DNA from: a virus
Strand: one strand, 5' to 3'
Length of the DNA stretch: 40,766 nucleotides
IMG/VR virus record: IMGVR_UViG_3300018063_000027
Coordinates: 1 to 40,766 of that record
Position 1 is the first letter of the stretch. Every line of letters begins with the position of its first letter. The position numbers and the translations under genes were made by a program. Below the pieces are notes generated by a model that was not told the origin of the DNA, made no database searches, and was given only the letters and a program-made list of their open reading frames with translations. This document shows positions 18,504-27,517 of the stretch, in pieces.

Positions 18504-18682
18504 CCCAGCACCACGTGGGCAGGCCGGCCGGATCCTTCACACGTTCGGACCCGTCCCAGCGGCTTCTCAGGCTCCTGCTCGCGCTGGGGCCGGTACACGT
18601 AGTGCTCGCGCACCAGGTCGCCCTTCCGCAGTGCGGTGTTGCCGCCACAGACGGGGCAGATCCCTCGAGGTAGGGCTGTCAT
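18500..18682 (-). CDS. 60-aa zinc-ribbon-like protein
   Basis: The product begins MTALPRGICPVCGGNTALRK and continues GDLVREHYVYRPQREQ, ending with a Cys-containing TCEGSGRP. CPVCGG plus the later Cys and His residues suggest one zinc site. Similar short proteins are common in actinophages. ATG 18682 overlaps the stop of the C2H2 gene. Unknown function. Confidence 0.7.
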   Translation of the reverse strand: MTALPRGICPVCGGNTALRKGDLVREHYVYRPQREQEPEKPLGRVRTCEGSGRPAHVVLG

Positions 18683-19254
18683 TCCCAGCCTCGATGTCCG
18701 ACGGTCGGACGGCCGACTGGCTTGCCGCGATCCGGTGCCGGGTGGCTCGCGCGGTGCGTGTCGCGATCGAGCTCGGTCTTGAACGACATGGGGCAGAGGT
18801 CGCAGAGGAACGAGCGCTTGCTATGCGCGACCTGACGCGGGCCCGGGTGGCGGTAGCGACGATGGGCCCCGAGCGACTGGGCGCTCTGGCCCGAGTAGTC
18901 GCAGTCACGGCACTTGAACGAGAAGGTGCGGGTGGAGCCCTCAGCGGTGGGCGCAGACTCCTGACCAACGCCGTCCTGACCGGTGGGCTTCGCTTGGCGA
19001 CGGCTCCTGCTAGGCCCGGATCGCTTACGCCGCTCGCCATCGCTGGCCACGTCCTCGTCCACCGGGTGAGGTTCTGTCGGCTGTTCGCCTCCCTCGCCTG
19101 CACCACTCGGCCCCACGCTTCCCAGCCCCATCGGGGCACCCGCATCATTGGCGCCGTCCAGGAGCGCCCGAAGCTCGCCCATCGCTTGAAGGCGATAGCG
19201 CTCGGCCTGTTCCAGCTCGTCGGCGATCGCTCGCAGCTGCTCAGGCACGATCAT
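18679..19254 (-). CDS. Protein with two classical C2H2 zinc fingers
   Basis: The 191-aa product has an N-terminal helix (EQLRAIADELEQAERYRLQA), a charged Gly/Ser/Pro-rich linker and two fingers. Finger 1: C115, C118, H131, H136 in FKCRDCDYSGQSAQSLGAHR. Finger 2: C151, C154, H167, H171 in FLCDLCPMSFKTELDRDTHR. The CX2C-X12-HX3-4H spacing is that of classical fingers, uncommon in bacterial viruses. Nucleic acid binding is likely. ATG 19254 is preceded closely by a run of ten G (coding strand) that acts as or displaces the ribosome-binding site. Confidence 0.75.
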   Translation of the reverse strand: MIVPEQLRAIADELEQAERYRLQAMGELRALLDGANDAGAPMGLGSVGPSGAGEGGEQPTEPHPVDEDVASDGERRKRSGPSRSRRQAKPTGQDGVGQESAPTAEGSTRTFSFKCRDCDYSGQSAQSLGAHRRYRHPGPRQVAHSKRSFLCDLCPMSFKTELDRDTHRASHPAPDRGKPVGRPTVGHRGWE

Positions 19255-21089: not shown

Positions 21090-21335
21090 TTAGGTGGGCC
21101 GGATCGGTCCGGCGGTCAAGATGGCTTGGTCGATGACGGCGCTGACGTGGTGGTCGTGGATCTCGTCGAAGAGCTGACGGGCTTGGCGGAGCCGCCCCAG
21201 GCCAGCGCGCCGGATGCGGCAGTCCTGGCACAACACCCGGCGGCGTCCGGTGAGTGGTTGCCCGACCTCACGACCACAATCAAGACACCGGCTGGCGTTC
21301 GCGGCGGTCAACGCTGCAGCCTGTTGGGTGGCCAT
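21090..21335 (-). CDS. Zinc-ribbon protein of 81 aa
   Basis: It contains CLDCGREVGQPLTGRRRVLC followed by QDC, that is CX2C-X15-CX2C, a zinc ribbon, and a helical C-terminus (ARQLFDEIHDHHVSAVIDQA). ATG 21335 overlaps the SbcC-like stop (TGATG). It may be a small regulator or accessory protein of the recombination genes. Confidence 0.7.
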   Translation of the reverse strand: MATQQAAALTAANASRCLDCGREVGQPLTGRRRVLCQDCRIRRAGLGRLRQARQLFDEIHDHHVSAVIDQAILTAGPIRPT

Positions 21336-23551
21336 CAGGACACGAGGCCCACATGGCTGCCCGCGGCGTCCTTGGTGACCGCGTAGACGGCATCGCCGTA
21401 CTCGGCCAGATCGGGGTGGTGCGACACGAGAATCACGCGCTCGAGCTCGCCGGCGTGGGCCAGGACGCGGAGGGCCTGGCCAAAGGCCCGGCGGGCGTCG
21501 GCATCGAGCCCGTCGGGCTCGTCGATGACTAGGGTCCGGATGGCGGTCCCGGCTCGTCGAGCGACGAGCCGGCTGAGCCCTACTGCCAGCGCCAGGCTGA
21601 CACTCATCCGCTCGCCGCCCGAGAACAGGGCCAGCGGCCGTTCGCCCGCGTCGTCGCTGACGATCAGGTCCAGGGCCTCGACGACCCCGTCCCCGCTCTT
21701 CTTGGCGCGCTGGGCGCGGATCTCGAGGGCCAGGCCCGGGCGCAGCTGATTGAGGAGCTCGTTGGCGTGACGCGACAACTCGGGCAGGACCGACTCGATG
21801 ATGCGGGCCGGGATCCCGTTCACCCCGAACGCGGTGACCAGCCGCTGCAGGATCCGCTCCTCGAGCACGGCCACGTCGAGGGCGGCTTCCAGCTCGGCGA
21901 CGATCGCGGCGTCGGCGTCCATCTGCTCCAGGAGGGTCTCGGCCTGAGTGACCGCGTGCTCCCAGGCGCGCGCCGTGGTGGCGATCTCGGTGACCCGACC
22001 CTCAAGGTGCGCGACGGTGCTCGTCGTCTGACGCTTGCGGGCGACGATCTCGTCCAGTCCGCGGAGTCGAACCTGGGCCCCGTCGAGGGCCGCGCGGGCC
22101 GCCTCACCGGCCGCGTTGGCGACGTCGCGGTCCTTCTCGGCCTGCGCGATCGCTGCGGTGGCGTCGGTCTTTGCGCGCTGCGCCTCGGTCATCCGGTCGG
22201 CCTGGCCGGCCACGACCTCGGCCGCCATCAGCGCGGCGCGGAGACGCGCGAGCTCCGATGGATCGGGCGCCGGGCCGAGAGCCTCGGCGGCACTACTGAC
22301 CGCCTCCCGGAGCTCGACGAGGGGGGGAGACTCATCGAGCGTCCGGGGCAGGGCGGCCAAGGCCTGGCGCGACGCCTCCACGCGCTCCGCCAGGCCGGCG
22401 GGATCGGCGGCGAACGTGGCGCCGCACTCGGGGCAGGTGACCGGTTCGAGAGCGTCGATCTGCGCTTCGAGTTGCGCGACCTGGTTGGCCACCAGCTGGT
22501 AGTCCAGCGCGACCTTGGCCGCCAGGCGCTCATGGTCACGCTCGGCGGTCGCCAGTTGGGACCGGAGCTCGCCGTAGGCCTCAGTGGCGTCCAGGTGGGC
22601 CGTGGCCCGCGCCTCTTCGGCGGCGAGGTTCCGGCGGATGCTCGGCAGGAGCCGCTTGGCCTGGGTGACATCCGCCTTCGAGGCGAGGATCTCATCGGCG
22701 CGGACCACGCGGCTGACCGCGTCGATGCGTCGCCGCTCGGCAGCCTGATAGGCGACCTTGGCCTCGTCGACCTGCCGCGTCGCGCGTCGGACATCCTCGA
22801 CCGCCGCGCCGGCGAGTGCGTGCTCCTCAGTGATTTGGAGAAGCAGCCCGCGGGCCTCAGCCAGTGCGCTCGCCACGGTGGCACCCTCGGCTTGGGCAGA
22901 GTTCACGGCCGCCCTGGCCTCGGACAACGTGGCCTCGACCTGGGGTCGGTCCGCGAGCCGCTCCATGAGTTGTTCGCGCTGCTCGCGCCGGGTCATCGCT
23001 GTGGCGTAGACGTCCCGCACGAGCCCGCGAGTGAAGTCCTCAGCCCGCTCGTAGCGGTCGAGGCCCAGCACCGTCGACAGGATCCGCTTCCGCTCAGCAG
23101 CAGTGGCCTCAGCGAAGGCGCTGGCCTTGCCCTGCATCAGCCAGGCTGCGGTGGCGAAGGTGGCCGCGTCCATGCGGAGCAGCTGCTCGATGAGGGCCTG
23201 GGTCTCCCGGATGGAGTCGGCGGTCAGCGGCCGCCAGCCGTCGCCGTCGGCGATCGCCAGCTCAAGGAACGACTTGCCGCCGGCGCGGGTCGATCGCCCA
23301 CGGATGGCGCGGTAGCGCTCGCCGGCGTACTCGAACTCGACGCTGGCGCTCATCTCGCTGGCGCCCAGCTGGACCAGGTCGTCGGTGCGGGCGCGGGCCG
23401 CGTCGTACAGGACGAACGAAACGGCGTCGAGCAGCGAGCTCTTGCCGGCTCCGTTCGCACCAACCAGCGTCGTCAGCCGAGCACCGTTCAGGGTGAGGTC
23501 GGTGTCGGGGTGCGAGAGGAAGTGCTTGAGCGTGATCCGGTCGACCCTCAT
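21335..23551 (-). CDS. sbcC: SbcC/Rad50-like ATPase
   Basis: The 738-aa product carries Walker A GANGAGKS (31-38), long coiled-coil arms, a zinc hook CPEC (C373, C376), the ABC signature FSGGERMS (about 643-650), Walker B LVIDEPDGL (about 669-677) and a switch His in VILVSHHPDLAEYGD. It is shorter than cellular SbcC, as in phage and archaeal-size forms. It should pair with the SbcD-like nuclease to process DNA ends or hairpins. It overlaps both neighbouring genes. A role in phage recombination or protection of ends is likely. Confidence 0.9.
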   Translation of the reverse strand: MRVDRITLKHFLSHPDTDLTLNGARLTTLVGANGAGKSSLLDAVSFVLYDAARARTDDLVQLGASEMSASVEFEYAGERYRAIRGRSTRAGGKSFLELAIADGDGWRPLTADSIRETQALIEQLLRMDAATFATAAWLMQGKASAFAEATAAERKRILSTVLGLDRYERAEDFTRGLVRDVYATAMTRREQREQLMERLADRPQVEATLSEARAAVNSAQAEGATVASALAEARGLLLQITEEHALAGAAVEDVRRATRQVDEAKVAYQAAERRRIDAVSRVVRADEILASKADVTQAKRLLPSIRRNLAAEEARATAHLDATEAYGELRSQLATAERDHERLAAKVALDYQLVANQVAQLEAQIDALEPVTCPECGATFAADPAGLAERVEASRQALAALPRTLDESPPLVELREAVSSAAEALGPAPDPSELARLRAALMAAEVVAGQADRMTEAQRAKTDATAAIAQAEKDRDVANAAGEAARAALDGAQVRLRGLDEIVARKRQTTSTVAHLEGRVTEIATTARAWEHAVTQAETLLEQMDADAAIVAELEAALDVAVLEERILQRLVTAFGVNGIPARIIESVLPELSRHANELLNQLRPGLALEIRAQRAKKSGDGVVEALDLIVSDDAGERPLALFSGGERMSVSLALAVGLSRLVARRAGTAIRTLVIDEPDGLDADARRAFGQALRVLAHAGELERVILVSHHPDLAEYGDAVYAVTKDAAGSHVGLVS

Positions 23552-24591
23552 GCGGCGGACTCCTCAGGCCAGCCGGCGAAACGACGGGCGATGTCAGCCG
23601 CCAAGGCCCGCTGCGCCTCCCGCCCTCTGTGGTTCGTCGGGAGTGGCTCGATATCGAAGGAGGCCAAGACGGCCCGCACCCGTTCGAGCGACAAGTGCGT
23701 AATCCCGCGCACGTACTCCATCGACGGATAGACCGCATAAGCCGTGATAATCGCCAGCCTCTCGTCGCCCGAAATCGGTCGCGGGACAGGAAGGTTGATT
23801 GGCAACTTGACCCGCTTGCAGGCGGCCCCGTAGCTCCCAAAGTGATTGGCGTAGGTCGTGGTCGCGGGAAGGCCGTAACGTCGGATGTCGCTCCTGGTTG
23901 GGGTGCGCCCTAGATCAAGGGCCACTGCTACCAGCCCCTCGAGCATCTCGTTCTCGCTCAGTCGTCTCTGGGTCTGCTGAGGCGGCCGGCTCTTCACCCA
24001 CGTCCGCAGCCGCTCAATAGATCCGGCGTAGCGCGTGACGGTGCCCTCGCCGATCCCGTACCGGCGGAGTTGGGCATGGGTAACCGATAGGCCTTGCCCT
24101 GCGATCGACCGCGCCACCGCCACCATCTGCGCCAAGCACTGACCAGTACGGTTCTCGGCCTCGGCGGTCTGCTGCCAGTTGGCCCGAGGCGGGACGGCCC
24201 TGCCGTGCCCGAACTCACCCTTGATTGAGGGGGGTGGCATGGCCCCCGCCCGCCAGCGGCGCAGCCCGCTGGCGATCAACGCCTGGCGATGTCTCTCTGA
24301 TATCAAGGCTGTCTTCTGAAGGAGACCGACCTCCTCCTTGAACTGTCTGGCGGGCAGCCCGTGCGCGAGACGAGAGTGATTACCCAAGTGGTCGAAGGTC
24401 CGGCCGCACCAAGGGCAGAGCAGCTTCCCGTCGTCGGCTTTGAGCACGACGCCCTGCGGATAGCCGGGCACCGCGCCTTCAAGCTGGACAAACGGCTCCT
24501 TGTAGTCGCCGTACCAGAACTCCCCGAGGTCGCCGACGGCGATCTTCTTCATCGTCCCACCTGCCATGCCCCTCGTGAGTCCCGGCTTCAT
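23548..24591 (-). CDS. Ros/MucR-like zinc finger plus HNH-repeat regulator
   Basis: From ATG 24591 the product has 347 aa. Residues 59-77 carry CPWCGRTFDHLGNHSRLAHG, a CX2C-X9-HX4-H finger of the prokaryotic Ros/MucR type. Further on, LGRTPTRSDIRRYGLPATTT and YANHFGSYGAACKRVKLPI match the homing-endonuclease-associated repeat; a less perfect copy with YGIGEGTVTRYAGSIERLRT lies before it. No HNH catalytic domain is visible. It sits between SbcD and SbcC genes, coupled to a 33-aa gene by ATGA; Met14 is an alternative start. DNA binding is likely; a regulatory or targeting role is inferred. Confidence 0.65.
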   Translation of the reverse strand: MKPGLTRGMAGGTMKKIAVGDLGEFWYGDYKEPFVQLEGAVPGYPQGVVLKADDGKLLCPWCGRTFDHLGNHSRLAHGLPARQFKEEVGLLQKTALISERHRQALIASGLRRWRAGAMPPPSIKGEFGHGRAVPPRANWQQTAEAENRTGQCLAQMVAVARSIAGQGLSVTHAQLRRYGIGEGTVTRYAGSIERLRTWVKSRPPQQTQRRLSENEMLEGLVAVALDLGRTPTRSDIRRYGLPATTTYANHFGSYGAACKRVKLPINLPVPRPISGDERLAIITAYAVYPSMEYVRGITHLSLERVRAVLASFDIEPLPTNHRGREAQRALAADIARRFAGWPEESAA

Positions 24592-24689
24592 CGGATCCGC
24601 ACCCAGACGGGGCCGTTGAGCCATTGGGGCCCGCGCAGGATCCAGGTCTCGGTGTGGCGAAGGCGGACCCAGCGCAGGAAGCGAGTCAT
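24588..24689 (-). CDS. Hidden 33-aa basic peptide
   Basis: ATG 24689 overlaps the SbcD-like stop and its TGA overlaps ATG 24591 of the next gene. The peptide (MTRFLRWVRLRHTETWILRG, then PQWLNGPVWVRIR) is basic and Trp-rich. Coupling on both sides and no alternative explanation for the 60-bp gap support it. Function unknown; it may act only as a translational relay. Confidence 0.5.
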   Translation of the reverse strand: MTRFLRWVRLRHTETWILRGPQWLNGPVWVRIR

Positions 24690-25822
24690 GACCCGACCTC
24701 CGCCAGGATGGCCCGGCCGCGCTCGATCAGCGCATCAGCCTCGGGGTCGTCTGCGAAGTAGGCGACGAGCGCCTCCTCCGCAGAAAGGGACTCGCTCATG
24801 CCGCCGGCGACGTCGTCGTCGCCCGGGCGGTGCCGCAGCTCGGCGACCTCGAACGCGCCGGCGCGTCCCAGGTCCTCGCGGAGCGCGATCAGGTCGACGG
24901 CCGGATCGAGGTCGACGCCGCGCACGATCGCGTCGTTCACCGTCGGCGGGATGGGGTCGGTCCCCGTCAGCGTCACGTAGCGGCGGGCCGGGGTCTCGAC
25001 GAACTCCCACTCGAACCGGCCCGGGCCGACCTCGGCGATGACGAAGCCTTTGACCTCGTCCTGTTCGCCGAAGTCGACCCGCTCGACCGATCCGGTGTAG
25101 AGGATGGGCGGGTCGGTGGAGAGGACCTGGTGGCGGTGCAGGTGGCCGGCGACGATGCCCTCGAAGCCGATGGCTCCCAGGTCGGCGGCGTCGATCACCA
25201 GCTGCTGGTCGCCGAGGAAGGCCTGCTGCGAGGCGCTCAGATGGGCGCCGGCCAGCGTCTGGTGGCAGACCAGGACGACACCATCGGGGTCGGGATGCTT
25301 CGCGTAGGCCTCCGCGTACAGGCCGCGGGCGATGGCCATGTACTGCTCAGCGAGGGCCGCGAAGAGTTGCGACTCGGGGACGTCCTCGAAGCCGGGCTGC
25401 GTCCGGAGCCAATGACGGTCGAGATACGGGATGGCGGCGATCGCCGTCCGCTTGACCCAGGTCACGCCCGGGCGGGCGAAGGCGTTCTGCCAGCCTCGCG
25501 TGTTCAGCCCGTAGCCCATGACGGTGACGATCGAGGCGCCGGCGATCTCCCCGTCGTGGTTGCCCCGGACGATGATCAGCTCAGGCGGGCACTCCTCGAG
25601 CGCGTCCTGGATCGTCCCCACCAGCCAGGGTGCCGGGTGCCGCCGCTCGGTGAAGTCGCCGGCGATGACCAGCGCGTCGCAGCCGCGCGCGAGCGCCTGG
25701 GTGGACACGAACCGCACCGTCTCGAGGTAGTCGACCAGGCGGGCGTTGAGCCCCGTTGCCGGATCACGGCGGGATCCGTACTCGTCGACATGAAGGTCGG
25801 CCGTGAAGCCGATGCGGGTCAC
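24686..25822 (-). CDS. sbcD: SbcD/Mre11-like nuclease
   Basis: The 378-aa calcineurin-like phosphoesterase has the diagnostic motifs: TADLHVD (8-14), VIAGDFTERRHP, IIVRGNHDGE, VCHQT and AGHLHRHQ, followed by a beta-rich and then an acidic helical C-terminus. It is the nuclease partner of the SbcC-like ATPase. It starts at ATG 25822, four bases inside the preceding gene. The complex should cut DNA ends and hairpins in the cytoplasm. Confidence 0.9.
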   Translation of the reverse strand: MTRIGFTADLHVDEYGSRRDPATGLNARLVDYLETVRFVSTQALARGCDALVIAGDFTERRHPAPWLVGTIQDALEECPPELIIVRGNHDGEIAGASIVTVMGYGLNTRGWQNAFARPGVTWVKRTAIAAIPYLDRHWLRTQPGFEDVPESQLFAALAEQYMAIARGLYAEAYAKHPDPDGVVLVCHQTLAGAHLSASQQAFLGDQQLVIDAADLGAIGFEGIVAGHLHRHQVLSTDPPILYTGSVERVDFGEQDEVKGFVIAEVGPGRFEWEFVETPARRYVTLTGTDPIPPTVNDAIVRGVDLDPAVDLIALREDLGRAGAFEVAELRHRPGDDDVAGGMSESLSAEEALVAYFADDPEADALIERGRAILAEVGS

Positions 25823-26922
25823 GCGTCGCCCTCACCGGCCGTGGCCACCGCGAGCTCGCCAGCAGCGGTGGCCCACGACGTGGCGAAGTGCTCGTCCTCG
25901 GCAGCCATCGACAGAATCGCGTCCGCCTGGGCGGAGCTGATGTCGCCGGGTGCCTTGAGGTCCCACACCGCGCCCAGGACGGTCATGACGTTCGCCTGAC
26001 CCAGGCCCCGGAGCAGTTCCTTGAGGGCGTCGCGCTGCTTCTGCGTGGCCGTGCCCTTGGCCGGGCTGGACTCGGTCCACTCGCGGAGCTTGTGGACGAA
26101 CTGCTCGCCTGGCGTCACCGTCTGCGTCGACGCCCAGTCGGGCTCCTCAACGCGTTCACCGGTCTCGGTGTCGACGCCCTCGGGCGCCGCATCGTCATCG
26201 GGCGCCTGTTCGATCAGGAGCGGCTCCTGGCGCTCGACGTCGCCGTTGGTCGGTCCGAACAGACGCGCACTGGCCGGTGCCAGCTGGCCGAGATACGCCT
26301 TCTGGACGTCGGGGTGGGCCATGTTCGGGACCCAGCGCAGGATCGCGAACGGCTTGGCCAGCTGGCTCTTCGGGAACGAGCCGTGGAGGCTGAGGACGGA
26401 TCGGATGGCCCGGTTGAAGGCCTTCGTCTCGGCGTTGGCCACCAGGTGCTCGCGGGCCTTGGCCAGGCGCTGGGGCGTCCAGCCCTTGGCCAGCTGGTTG
26501 AGGTCGATCCGCTTCGAGCCGAAGCCGCGCACGACACGGCCAGACGGGAGGGTCATCTCGATCTCGACCCGCCACTCGACGATCTCGGGATCCTTCCCAT
26601 CGTCCATCCGGCGGCTGTCGAGCTGGGTGATTCCGGCGACGCTGGCCAGCCGGGCCAGGGCCCGCGCGGTGGGCGCGAAGTGGTTGTCCTTCATCTGGCT
26701 GTCGTGGTAGATGTCGCCGCCTTCGGCGTCGGTCGACAGCTGGACGACCTCGATGTCGGGGACCAGGTACGGGTTGATCTGACGGATCGCCACCGTCGGG
26801 ACGAGCAGGTTGTACTTCGACTCGGGGAACGACCCGAGCAGCTCGACCTCCTTGGGGCCGGCCCACTCGGGGACGGCTGACGCCCGGGTGGCGAGCGCCG
26901 TGGTGGTGGATTCCTTGGGCAC
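25819..26922 (-). CDS. Putative single-strand annealing recombination protein
   Basis: The 367-aa product has a central module with AREHLVANAETKAFNRAIRS and VLSLHGSFPKSQLAKPFAIL, similar to the 'AxTKAxxRA' helix of Rad52/Sak-like phage annealing proteins, preceded by strands (VEIEMTLPSGRVVRGFGSKR). The C-terminal third is acidic and helical. GTG 26922 has GGAGG eight bases upstream. Its place before the SbcCD genes fits a recombination module. The annealing role is an inference; it is otherwise a conserved phage protein of unknown function. Confidence 0.45.
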   Translation of the reverse strand: MPKESTTTALATRASAVPEWAGPKEVELLGSFPESKYNLLVPTVAIRQINPYLVPDIEVVQLSTDAEGGDIYHDSQMKDNHFAPTARALARLASVAGITQLDSRRMDDGKDPEIVEWRVEIEMTLPSGRVVRGFGSKRIDLNQLAKGWTPQRLAKAREHLVANAETKAFNRAIRSVLSLHGSFPKSQLAKPFAILRWVPNMAHPDVQKAYLGQLAPASARLFGPTNGDVERQEPLLIEQAPDDDAAPEGVDTETGERVEEPDWASTQTVTPGEQFVHKLREWTESSPAKGTATQKQRDALKELLRGLGQANVMTVLGAVWDLKAPGDISSAQADAILSMAAEDEHFATSWATAAGELAVATAGEGDA

Positions 26923-26982: not shown

Positions 26983-27287
26983 GCGCCCTGCTCCCCGTCG
27001 AAGCAGCCGTCGGCCAGTGGCATCTGCCCTGGCGCGATGAAGGTGATCCCGGCAGCCTCGGCGGCGTGCCGGCGTGCGTACTCGTTCAGTCGGTTCAGGC
27101 GCTGATCGGCGGCGAAGATCCGAGGCCACGGGTCCCGCCCGGTCACCTTCGCGACCACCGCGTGGCCCAGCTGGCGCCGCGCCTCGAGAGCCAGGGCCTG
27201 GACGTCCATCCAGGACTCCTCTGCAGCCGCTCGGGTCACGACCTCTCGGCTGCGCGCCTCGACGGCGGCTCGGCCCGCTCGGGTCAT
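26979..27287 (-). CDS. Early protein of 102 aa, unknown
   Basis: The product is helical (AGRAAVEARSREVVTRAAAE, WMDVQALALEARRQLGHAVV) with a C-terminal ITFIAPGQMPLADGCFDGEQ. ATG 27287 overlaps the stop of the HTH gene. It lies second in the leftward early operon. No family is recognised. Confidence 0.62.
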   Translation of the reverse strand: MTRAGRAAVEARSREVVTRAAAEESWMDVQALALEARRQLGHAVVAKVTGRDPWPRIFAADQRLNRLNEYARRHAAEAAGITFIAPGQMPLADGCFDGEQGA

Positions 27288-27517
27288 GCGATCGCCTTCC
27301 GACGCCGGGCGCGGATCCCAAAGTTCGCCATCCAGCGGGAGACCGTGCCTTTGGTGAGGTTCAGGCGGGTGGCGATCTCCTCCATGTCGAGTCCCTGGAC
27401 CTCGTAGAGGTCACGCAGGAGCTCGTCGATCGGCTGGCCGTGCTCGGCCTCCAGGAACTGCATCTCGCGGGTCCGTAGGACAACTCGTTGTTCCACGCCG
27501 GCGATGATGGCCGACAA
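27284..27517 (-). CDS. Early HTH protein, Cro-like position
   Basis: The 77-aa product has a helix-turn-helix near its C-terminus: GLDMEEIATRLNLTKGTVSR followed by WMANFGIRARRRKAIA. It is the first gene of the leftward early operon, divergent from the repressor. The start is TTG 27517 as drawn; GTG 27496 (VEQRVVLRTREMQF) is a good alternative. It could act like Cro or as an early regulator. An operator palindrome overlaps the likely transcription start. Confidence 0.65.
   Translation of the reverse strand: MSAIIAGVEQRVVLRTREMQFLEAEHGQPIDELLRDLYEVQGLDMEEIATRLNLTKGTVSRWMANFGIRARRRKAIA
27480..27491. promoter_or_regulatory. Operator-like inverted repeat O1
   Basis: ACAAC-TC-GTTGT is a perfect 12-bp inverted repeat near the alternative GTG start of the early HTH gene. 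It shares the ACAA/TTGT half-sites of the neighbouring elements. Confidence 0.4.

What the first reader, a model, noticed from the sequence alone, without database searches (positions are those of the whole stretch)
21335..26922. SbcCD pair split by a zinc-finger/HNH-repeat protein
SbcD-like, a 33-aa peptide, a Ros-type finger with HNH-associated repeats, and SbcC-like genes form one overlapping unit, next to a putative annealing protein. The inserted protein has DNA-binding parts but no visible catalytic HNH domain, so it may target or regulate the complex, or be a domesticated homing element.
Basis: partly seen in the sequence, partly recalled or inferred. Interest (0 to 1): 0.55.

Follow-up and report, generated by a model that had tools for sequence, protein, structure and literature searches.

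The report
Stray DNA-binding gene between sbcD, sbcC
In one soil phage, a gene for a zinc-finger DNA-binding protein sits between the two genes of a DNA-repair nuclease, but relatives of that nuclease lack it and its own relatives lie elsewhere, so it looks like a passing mobile gene rather than a new part of the nuclease.

Summary
On the minus strand lie a Rad52-like annealing protein, SbcD, a 33-aa ORF, a Ros-finger/HNH_repeat protein (here "ZnF") and SbcC, in tight or overlapping order. All 9 related viral contigs with this SbcCD pair keep the order annealing protein-SbcD-SbcC. None has the ZnF gene, at the junction or elsewhere in the record. Three of the 9 join sbcD directly to sbcC; six carry one or two small ORFs instead, so the junction is a tolerant slot. 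The only two full-length ZnF relatives found lie elsewhere: after a glycosyltransferase-like gene (L001), and between terminase and portal genes on the opposite strand (L005). No SbcD was found in either record, although both are short fragments. ZnF has a Ros zinc finger (Cx2Cx9Hx4H) and one clear HNH_repeat, but no recognisable nuclease in any of the frames tested. Best reading: a sporadic, free-standing mobile-type gene for a DNA-binding protein, most likely the DNA-targeting part of a homing endonuclease, now a site-specific binder or repressor. Low to moderate interest.

The parts
25819..26922 (-). Rad52-like (annealing) protein, phrog_13782, conserved neighbour of SbcD
   Evidence: phrog_13782 in 9 of 9 aligned members; a tblastn match upstream of SbcD in 9 of 9 relatives; AF2 pLDDT 72, best Foldseek matches RAD52 (E 4e-3, prob 0.98), VIA Z 7.9 (rmsd 6.9, 138 aligned). 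Fold-level inference only.
24686..25822 (-). SbcD (Mre11-type phosphoesterase)
   Evidence: phrog_100 9.7e-22, Metallophos 1.5e-9, TIGR00619 1.4e-12; DLH, GDF, GNHD, CH and GHLH motifs kept in L002 (motif names recalled)
24588..24689 (-). 33-aa ORF overlapping the SbcD stop
   Evidence: GC3 0.88; no homologue among the junction ORFs of relatives
23548..24552 (-). Ros-finger/HNH_repeat protein (ZnF), 334 aa from the likely start; the longer ORF begins at 24624
   Evidence: stop overlaps the SbcC ATG
24448..24552 (-). conserved N-terminal segment (residues 1-35), function unknown
   Evidence: A6 alignment; lowest pN/pS of the three regions compared, 0.13-0.28; AF2 unconfident here
24361..24417 (-). 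Ros-type zinc finger C46-x2-C49-x9-H59-x4-H64
   Evidence: same pattern in 3 of 3 homologues; spacing equals Ros C79, C82, H92, H97 (PMC7283297 passages)
23992..24165 (-). degenerate first HNH_repeat-like helical unit (residues 130-187)
   Evidence: helices in the AF2 model; internal repeat in the window protein 0 of 2000 shuffles, not clear in the homologues
23809..23958 (-). HNH_repeat PF18780
23659..23763 (-). third helical unit, HTH-like (residues 264-298)
   Evidence: three helices in the AF2 model; weak HTH_Tnp_ISL3 match in L005 only (E 0.32)
21335..23551 (-). SbcC (Rad50-type ATPase)
   Evidence: phrog_77 7.5e-72; Walker A GANGAGKSS, FSGGER, VIDEP and CPEC hook: the last three kept in L002, Walker A there GPNGAGKSS (motif names recalled)

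Best explanation
The inserted gene is a sporadic, free-standing mobile-type gene that landed in a tolerant slot between sbcD and sbcC of one probably temperate soil-type phage. Its protein is a modular DNA binder: a Ros-type zinc finger, one or two HNH-associated helical repeats and a terminal HTH-like unit. It is most likely the DNA-targeting part of an HNH-type homing endonuclease that has no nuclease domain. It probably binds a specific site in phage or host DNA and acts as a repressor or autoregulator, as I-TevI's DNA-binding domain can. It is translated with sbcC because their stop and start overlap, but it is not a conserved part of SbcCD. Shown by computation: domain architecture, absence from related SbcCD cassettes, unrelated locations of its homologues, lack of a recognised nuclease domain. 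Inferred: DNA binding, homing ancestry, repressor role, translational coupling.
For: 0 of 9 SbcCD relatives hold the family anywhere in the record. Junction survey: 3 of 9 direct, 6 of 9 with other small ORFs. Full-length homologues lie after a glycosyltransferase-like gene (L001) and between terminase and portal genes on the opposite strand (L005); no SbcD in either record. 0 of 79 other contigs found through the L005 terminase hold a full-length family member (tblastn 1e-3 on the DNA held). HNH_repeat in 3 of 3 homologues; Ros spacing in 3 of 3; Ros is the best PDB sequence match. No invariant His outside the finger, and no Pfam nuclease in the protein or in 7 alternative-frame/neighbouring ORFs. 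Lowest codon adaptation of the 25 genes compared (0.504; SbcD 0.772, SbcC 0.710). Precedent: T4's 12 free-standing homing endonucleases lie between conserved genes, for example mobE in nrdB/nrdA, and I-TevI's DNA-binding domain doubles as an autorepressor (PMC2988022, passages).
Against: Only three full-length members were found, so 'mobile' rests on three sites with no near-identical occupied/empty pair. L002 is a protein-level empty allele (SbcD 69%, SbcC 51%), and around L005 the flanking module itself is swapped (portal 36% in L027). L001 and L005 lie in 17.7- and 21.6-kb fragments, so an SbcCD elsewhere in those phages is not excluded. A tight stop/start overlap with sbcC is also what a co-expressed partner would show. 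GC3 (0.80) is not unique: terL has 0.77. Purifying selection (pN/pS 0.55-0.63 with dS near saturation) fits any useful protein.
Confidence: 0.6

Rival explanations
1. The protein targets or regulates SbcCD: it is co-translated with SbcC and brings the nuclease to, or keeps it from, certain DNA sites.
For: Position inside the cassette and a 4-nt stop/start overlap with sbcC; DNA-binding domains.
Against: 0 of 9 SbcCD relatives have it, and the two homologues are in records with no SbcD match. Direct sbcD-sbcC overlap in 3 of 9 relatives suggests the pair works without it.
Confidence: 0.1
2. It is an active free-standing homing endonuclease with an unrecognised catalytic site, perhaps in the conserved N-terminal 35 residues.
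For: Sporadic presence at three unrelated sites; HNH_repeat; invariant D8, E11, D16, K18, E19, E25 in the most conserved segment.
Against: No nuclease family match and no invariant His outside the finger. The N-terminal segment is short and modelled with pLDDT under 40, so it is untested rather than excluded. No nuclease fold match, though the model is too poor to exclude one.
Confidence: 0.15
3. An ordinary Ros/MucR-like transcription regulator of the phage, spread by the usual gene shuffling of phages, with no homing ancestry; the HNH_repeat is just a general HTH module.
For: Ros/MucR fingers fused to HTH units occur in other actinophage proteins: Min1 gp68 and Gordonia phage Finkle gp29. 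Ros/MucR proteins are regulators (PMC7283297, passages).
Against: PF18780 is by its Pfam description a homing-endonuclease-associated repeat, and in HRTV-27 gp049 it is joined to an HNH_3 domain, which is just below its cut-off there.
Confidence: 0.15

Closest known systems
HNH homing endonucleases with HNH_repeat (PF18780), e.g. HRTV-27 gp049 (YP_010358238.1)
   Same: Same repeat; it matches ZnF of L005 over residues 197-327 at 31%; a small free-standing phage gene next to a recombination-type nuclease gene (Cas4-like)
   Different: gp049 has an N-terminal HNH_3-like domain (23.3 of 24.8 bits) and two repeats; ZnF has a Ros finger in that place and no HNH
Ros/MucR prokaryotic zinc-finger regulators (PF05443; PDB 2jsp)
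   Same: C-x2-C-x9-H-x4-H finger and the region after it
   Different: ZnF adds a conserved N-terminal segment and about 200 residues of helical repeat/HTH units; the window copy is below Pfam's cut-off
I-TevI and T4 free-standing homing endonucleases (PMC2988022, passages)
   Same: Beads-on-a-string DNA-binding modules including a zinc finger and an HTH; location between conserved genes such as nrdB/nrdA; DNA-binding part can act as repressor
   Different: T4 enzymes have GIY-YIG or HNH catalytic domains; none was found here
Actinophage Ros-finger/HTH proteins (Gordonia phage Finkle gp29, Microbacterium phage Min1 gp68)
   Same: Ros/MucR finger followed by HTH units
   Different: No HNH_repeat; similarity restricted to the finger region
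Phage SbcCD pairs (phrog_77/phrog_100)
   Same: SbcC and SbcD of the window belong here
   Different: In 9 of 9 close relatives the pair lacks the ZnF gene; the cassette starts with a Rad52-like protein

Membership tests
HNH homing endonuclease | catalytic HNH (or other known homing nuclease) domain | tested here: not met
   No such Pfam, PHROG, NCBIfam or PADLOC domain in ZnF; no invariant His outside the finger; none in 7 alternative-frame/neighbouring ORFs
HNH homing endonuclease | HNH-associated DNA-binding repeat | tested here: met
   PF18780 above cut-off in 3 of 3 homologues
HNH homing endonuclease | sporadic presence at junctions of conserved genes, empty in relatives | tested here: met
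   0 of 9 SbcCD relatives; 0 of 79 terminase relatives; no near-identical occupied/empty pair
HNH homing endonuclease | cuts the empty allele and is copied into it | not testable with these tools
   needs protein and crosses
Ros/MucR zinc-finger family | C-x2-C-x9-H-x4-H zinc site | tested here: met
   3 of 3 homologues; Ros ligands as in PMC7283297 passages
Ros/MucR zinc-finger family | Pfam PF05443 above gathering score | tested here: inconclusive
   window 15.8-16.0, L001 19.4, L005 27.1 against 25.4 bits
Ros/MucR zinc-finger family | oligomeric gene silencer activity | not testable with these tools
   needs protein work
conserved SbcCD accessory subunit | gene linked to sbcC/sbcD across relatives | tested here: not met
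   0 of 9 relatives; the two homologues lie in records without an SbcD match
SbcCD | SbcD phosphoesterase and SbcC ABC ATPase with CxxC hook | tested here: met
Rad52-type annealing protein (neighbour gene) | Rad52 fold | tested here: inconclusive
   Top 18 Foldseek ranks are RAD52 chains but E 4e-3 at best; VIA Z 7.9 (rmsd 6.9, 138 aligned), under 8

The most novel reading that the evidence does not exclude
A small family of free-standing phage elements that spread between unrelated gene junctions without any recognised nuclease of their own. They would use a Ros finger plus HNH repeats to choose the site, and either a new catalytic centre in the conserved N-terminal 35 residues or the phage's own recombination nucleases (here the surrounding Rad52-like/SbcCD cassette) to open it.
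Probability: 0.06. Interest if true: 0.6.

Novelty: new variant of a known kind. Interest (0 to 1): 0.22.

Why it matters
It shows that an interrupted SbcCD operon need not mean a new SbcCD partner: the junction takes up other small genes in 6 of 9 relatives. It also defines a small family joining a Ros/MucR finger to a homing-endonuclease-associated repeat without a visible nuclease. Beside it lies a cassette, Rad52-like protein plus SbcD plus SbcC, kept in 9 of 9 relatives, whose first protein had no function attached in PHROGs.

Tried and rejected
A conserved SbcCD accessory: rejected by the synteny survey.

A hidden HNH enzyme in another frame, as reported for the ShiLan element (PMC11855218, passages): seven ORFs from the region (62, 74, 94, 226, 192, 33 and 40 aa) gave no nuclease family; only one sub-threshold hit, ALN at E 0.07.

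Catalytic domain by structure: the ZnF model has mean pLDDT 55.3 and residues 1-40 below 50. Its best PDB match has E 0.064 and is not meaningful, so structure neither supports nor excludes a nuclease.

More relatives: three viral scans with ZnF and two genome-contig scans gave only L001 and L005 as full-length relatives. The genome scans relied on N-terminal peptide patterns, so cellular relatives could be missed. Phages and plasmids gave domain-level hits only. A single-sequence SbcC scan found nothing; the two-row alignment found L006 and L007.

Rows dropped: of the 12 loci, L015-L018 were left out of the survey, because only about 80-95 residues of SbcD matched at 25-26% and one search gave no SbcC or annealing match in them. 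L007 is the same contig as L002; L004, L019 and L021 the same as L001; L020, L023 and L026 the same as L005. L010 was left out of alignment A7 because its annealing ORF is cut by the contig end. L014 is distant (SbcD 28%) but counted among the 9.

A clean empty site at L005: not obtained. In L027 the terminase is 93% identical but the portal only 36%, and DNA similarity stops near the terminase end.

Literature: no paper was found that describes such a protein or an interrupted phage sbcD-sbcC pair, in searches of this library only; of their hits I read passages of PMC11855218 and PMC8078820 only.
Full report
What is there. The window is a virus record of 40,766 bases with terminase, portal, head and tail genes and a serine integrase, so it is a tailed and probably temperate phage. 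On the minus strand, in reading order, lie a 367-aa protein (25819-26922), SbcD (24686-25822), a 33-aa ORF (24588-24689), the ZnF ORF (23548-24624) and SbcC (21335-23551). SbcD and SbcC are supported by PHROGs (phrog_100, 9.7e-22; phrog_77, 7.5e-72) and weaker Pfam/NCBIfam matches. Their expected active-site motifs (recalled) are present and kept in the relative L002.

The inserted protein. Homology with L001 and L005 starts at the ATG at 24552, giving 334 aa. It has a Ros-type finger: C-x2-C-x9-H-x4-H in 3 of 3 homologues, the spacing of the Ros ligands C79, C82, H92 and H97 given in PMC7283297 (passages). The profile's best solved-structure match is Ros, at a modest E of 0.01. ROS_MUCR is above Pfam's cut-off only in L005. 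HNH_repeat is above cut-off in 3 of 3. A second, degenerate unit before it is clear only in the window copy (0 of 2000 shuffles, against 785 and 184 of 2000 in L001 and L005). The structure model is poor overall (pLDDT 55) but shows helical units from residue 130 onward. There is no recognised nuclease, and no invariant histidine outside the finger. The N-terminal 35 residues are the most constrained part, with pN/pS 0.13-0.28, and are unexplained.

Is it linked to SbcCD? Two viral scans with two-row alignments of SbcC and SbcD gave nine contigs with this cassette: L002, L006 and L008-L014. All nine keep the order annealing-like protein, SbcD, SbcC. The SbcD-SbcC junction is a direct overlap in three (L006, L008, L014) and holds one or two small ORFs in six; apart from one in L009 and one in L011 (43% over 35 aa) no clear similarity was found among these. 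None of the nine whole records has the ZnF family. Conversely, L001 and L005, the only two full-length homologues found, have no SbcD in their records, though these are 17.7- and 21.6-kb fragments. In L001 the gene follows a glycosyltransferase-like gene (that name is my reading of the sequence, no family search was run on it). In L005 it lies between terminase and portal genes, against their direction (these two names are my reading too, supported by the many terminase-type relatives), and none of 79 other contigs found through that terminase has it in the DNA held. The gene also has the lowest codon adaptation of 25 genes compared in the window (0.504), although its GC3 is not unique.

How it most likely works. 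A phage gene with a homing-endonuclease-associated repeat, present sporadically between conserved genes, resembles the free-standing homing endonucleases of T4. Twelve of those lie in intergenic regions, one of them (mobE) between nrdB and nrdA (PMC2988022, passages). Those have catalytic domains; this family shows none. The same review describes I-TevI as beads-on-a-string DNA-binding modules, with a zinc finger and an HTH, whose DNA-binding domain alone acts as a repressor. I therefore take ZnF to be a nuclease-less, sequence-specific DNA binder of homing-type ancestry, probably a repressor or autoregulator. DNA binding, ancestry and role are inferred; architecture and distribution are shown. 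A hidden HNH in another frame, known from the ShiLan element (PMC11855218, passages), was looked for and not found.

By-product. The conserved first gene of the cassette matches only a PHROG of unknown function (9 of 9 members) and no solved structure by sequence. Its model (pLDDT 72, nine-row alignment) has RAD52 chains as its top 18 Foldseek matches (best E 4e-3, probability 0.98), and VIA-align puts RAD52 and the yeast annealing protein Mgm101 among its first rows, with Z 7.9 at most.

Verdict. Real observation, correct domain reading; the SbcCD-partner idea is not supported. The gene is a sporadic mobile-type DNA-binding gene: a new variant of a known kind, of low to moderate interest. That the phage is a soil phage infecting an actinobacterium is only my guess from high G+C and from where domain-level relatives occur; no call tested it.

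Noticed in passing
window 25819-26922 (-): Protein of phrog_13782 (function unknown) kept beside SbcD in 9 of 9 relatives; its model resembles RAD52, suggesting an unannotated phage Rad52-like annealing family paired with SbcCD.
   Followed up: partly
L002 9143-9265; L009 9143-9394 and 9394-9561; L011 9134-9244: Small Cys-rich (CxxC) ORFs sit at the sbcD-sbcC junction in several relatives; whether this is more than the usual abundance of such ORFs in phages was not tested.
   Followed up: no
window 24448-24552 (-): The first 35 codons of the ZnF gene differ less at synonymous sites (pS 0.50-0.65) than the finger and C-terminal parts (0.69-0.85) in all three pairs; could be codon bias, a DNA or RNA signal, or recombination.
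   Followed up: no
window 18679-19254 (-): 191-aa ORF with two sub-threshold C2H2-like zinc fingers.
   Followed up: no
window 27284-27517 (-): 77-aa HTH protein whose best PHROG match is the N-terminal part of an HNH endonuclease family (phrog_7545, 2.3e-8), again without a nuclease part.
   Followed up: no
L001 6059-6748 (-); L005 13738-14289 (-): The two contigs with ZnF homologues also carry intact-looking HNH genes (NUMOD3+HNH in L001, HNH in L005), not adjacent to the ZnF gene; a nuclease acting in trans is an untested possibility.
   Followed up: no
L030 1989-3850: Terminase-portal interval of about 1.86 kb between matches, against 50-788 nt in the other 24 loci with both genes outside the L005 record; not the ZnF family. 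Contents not examined.
   Followed up: no
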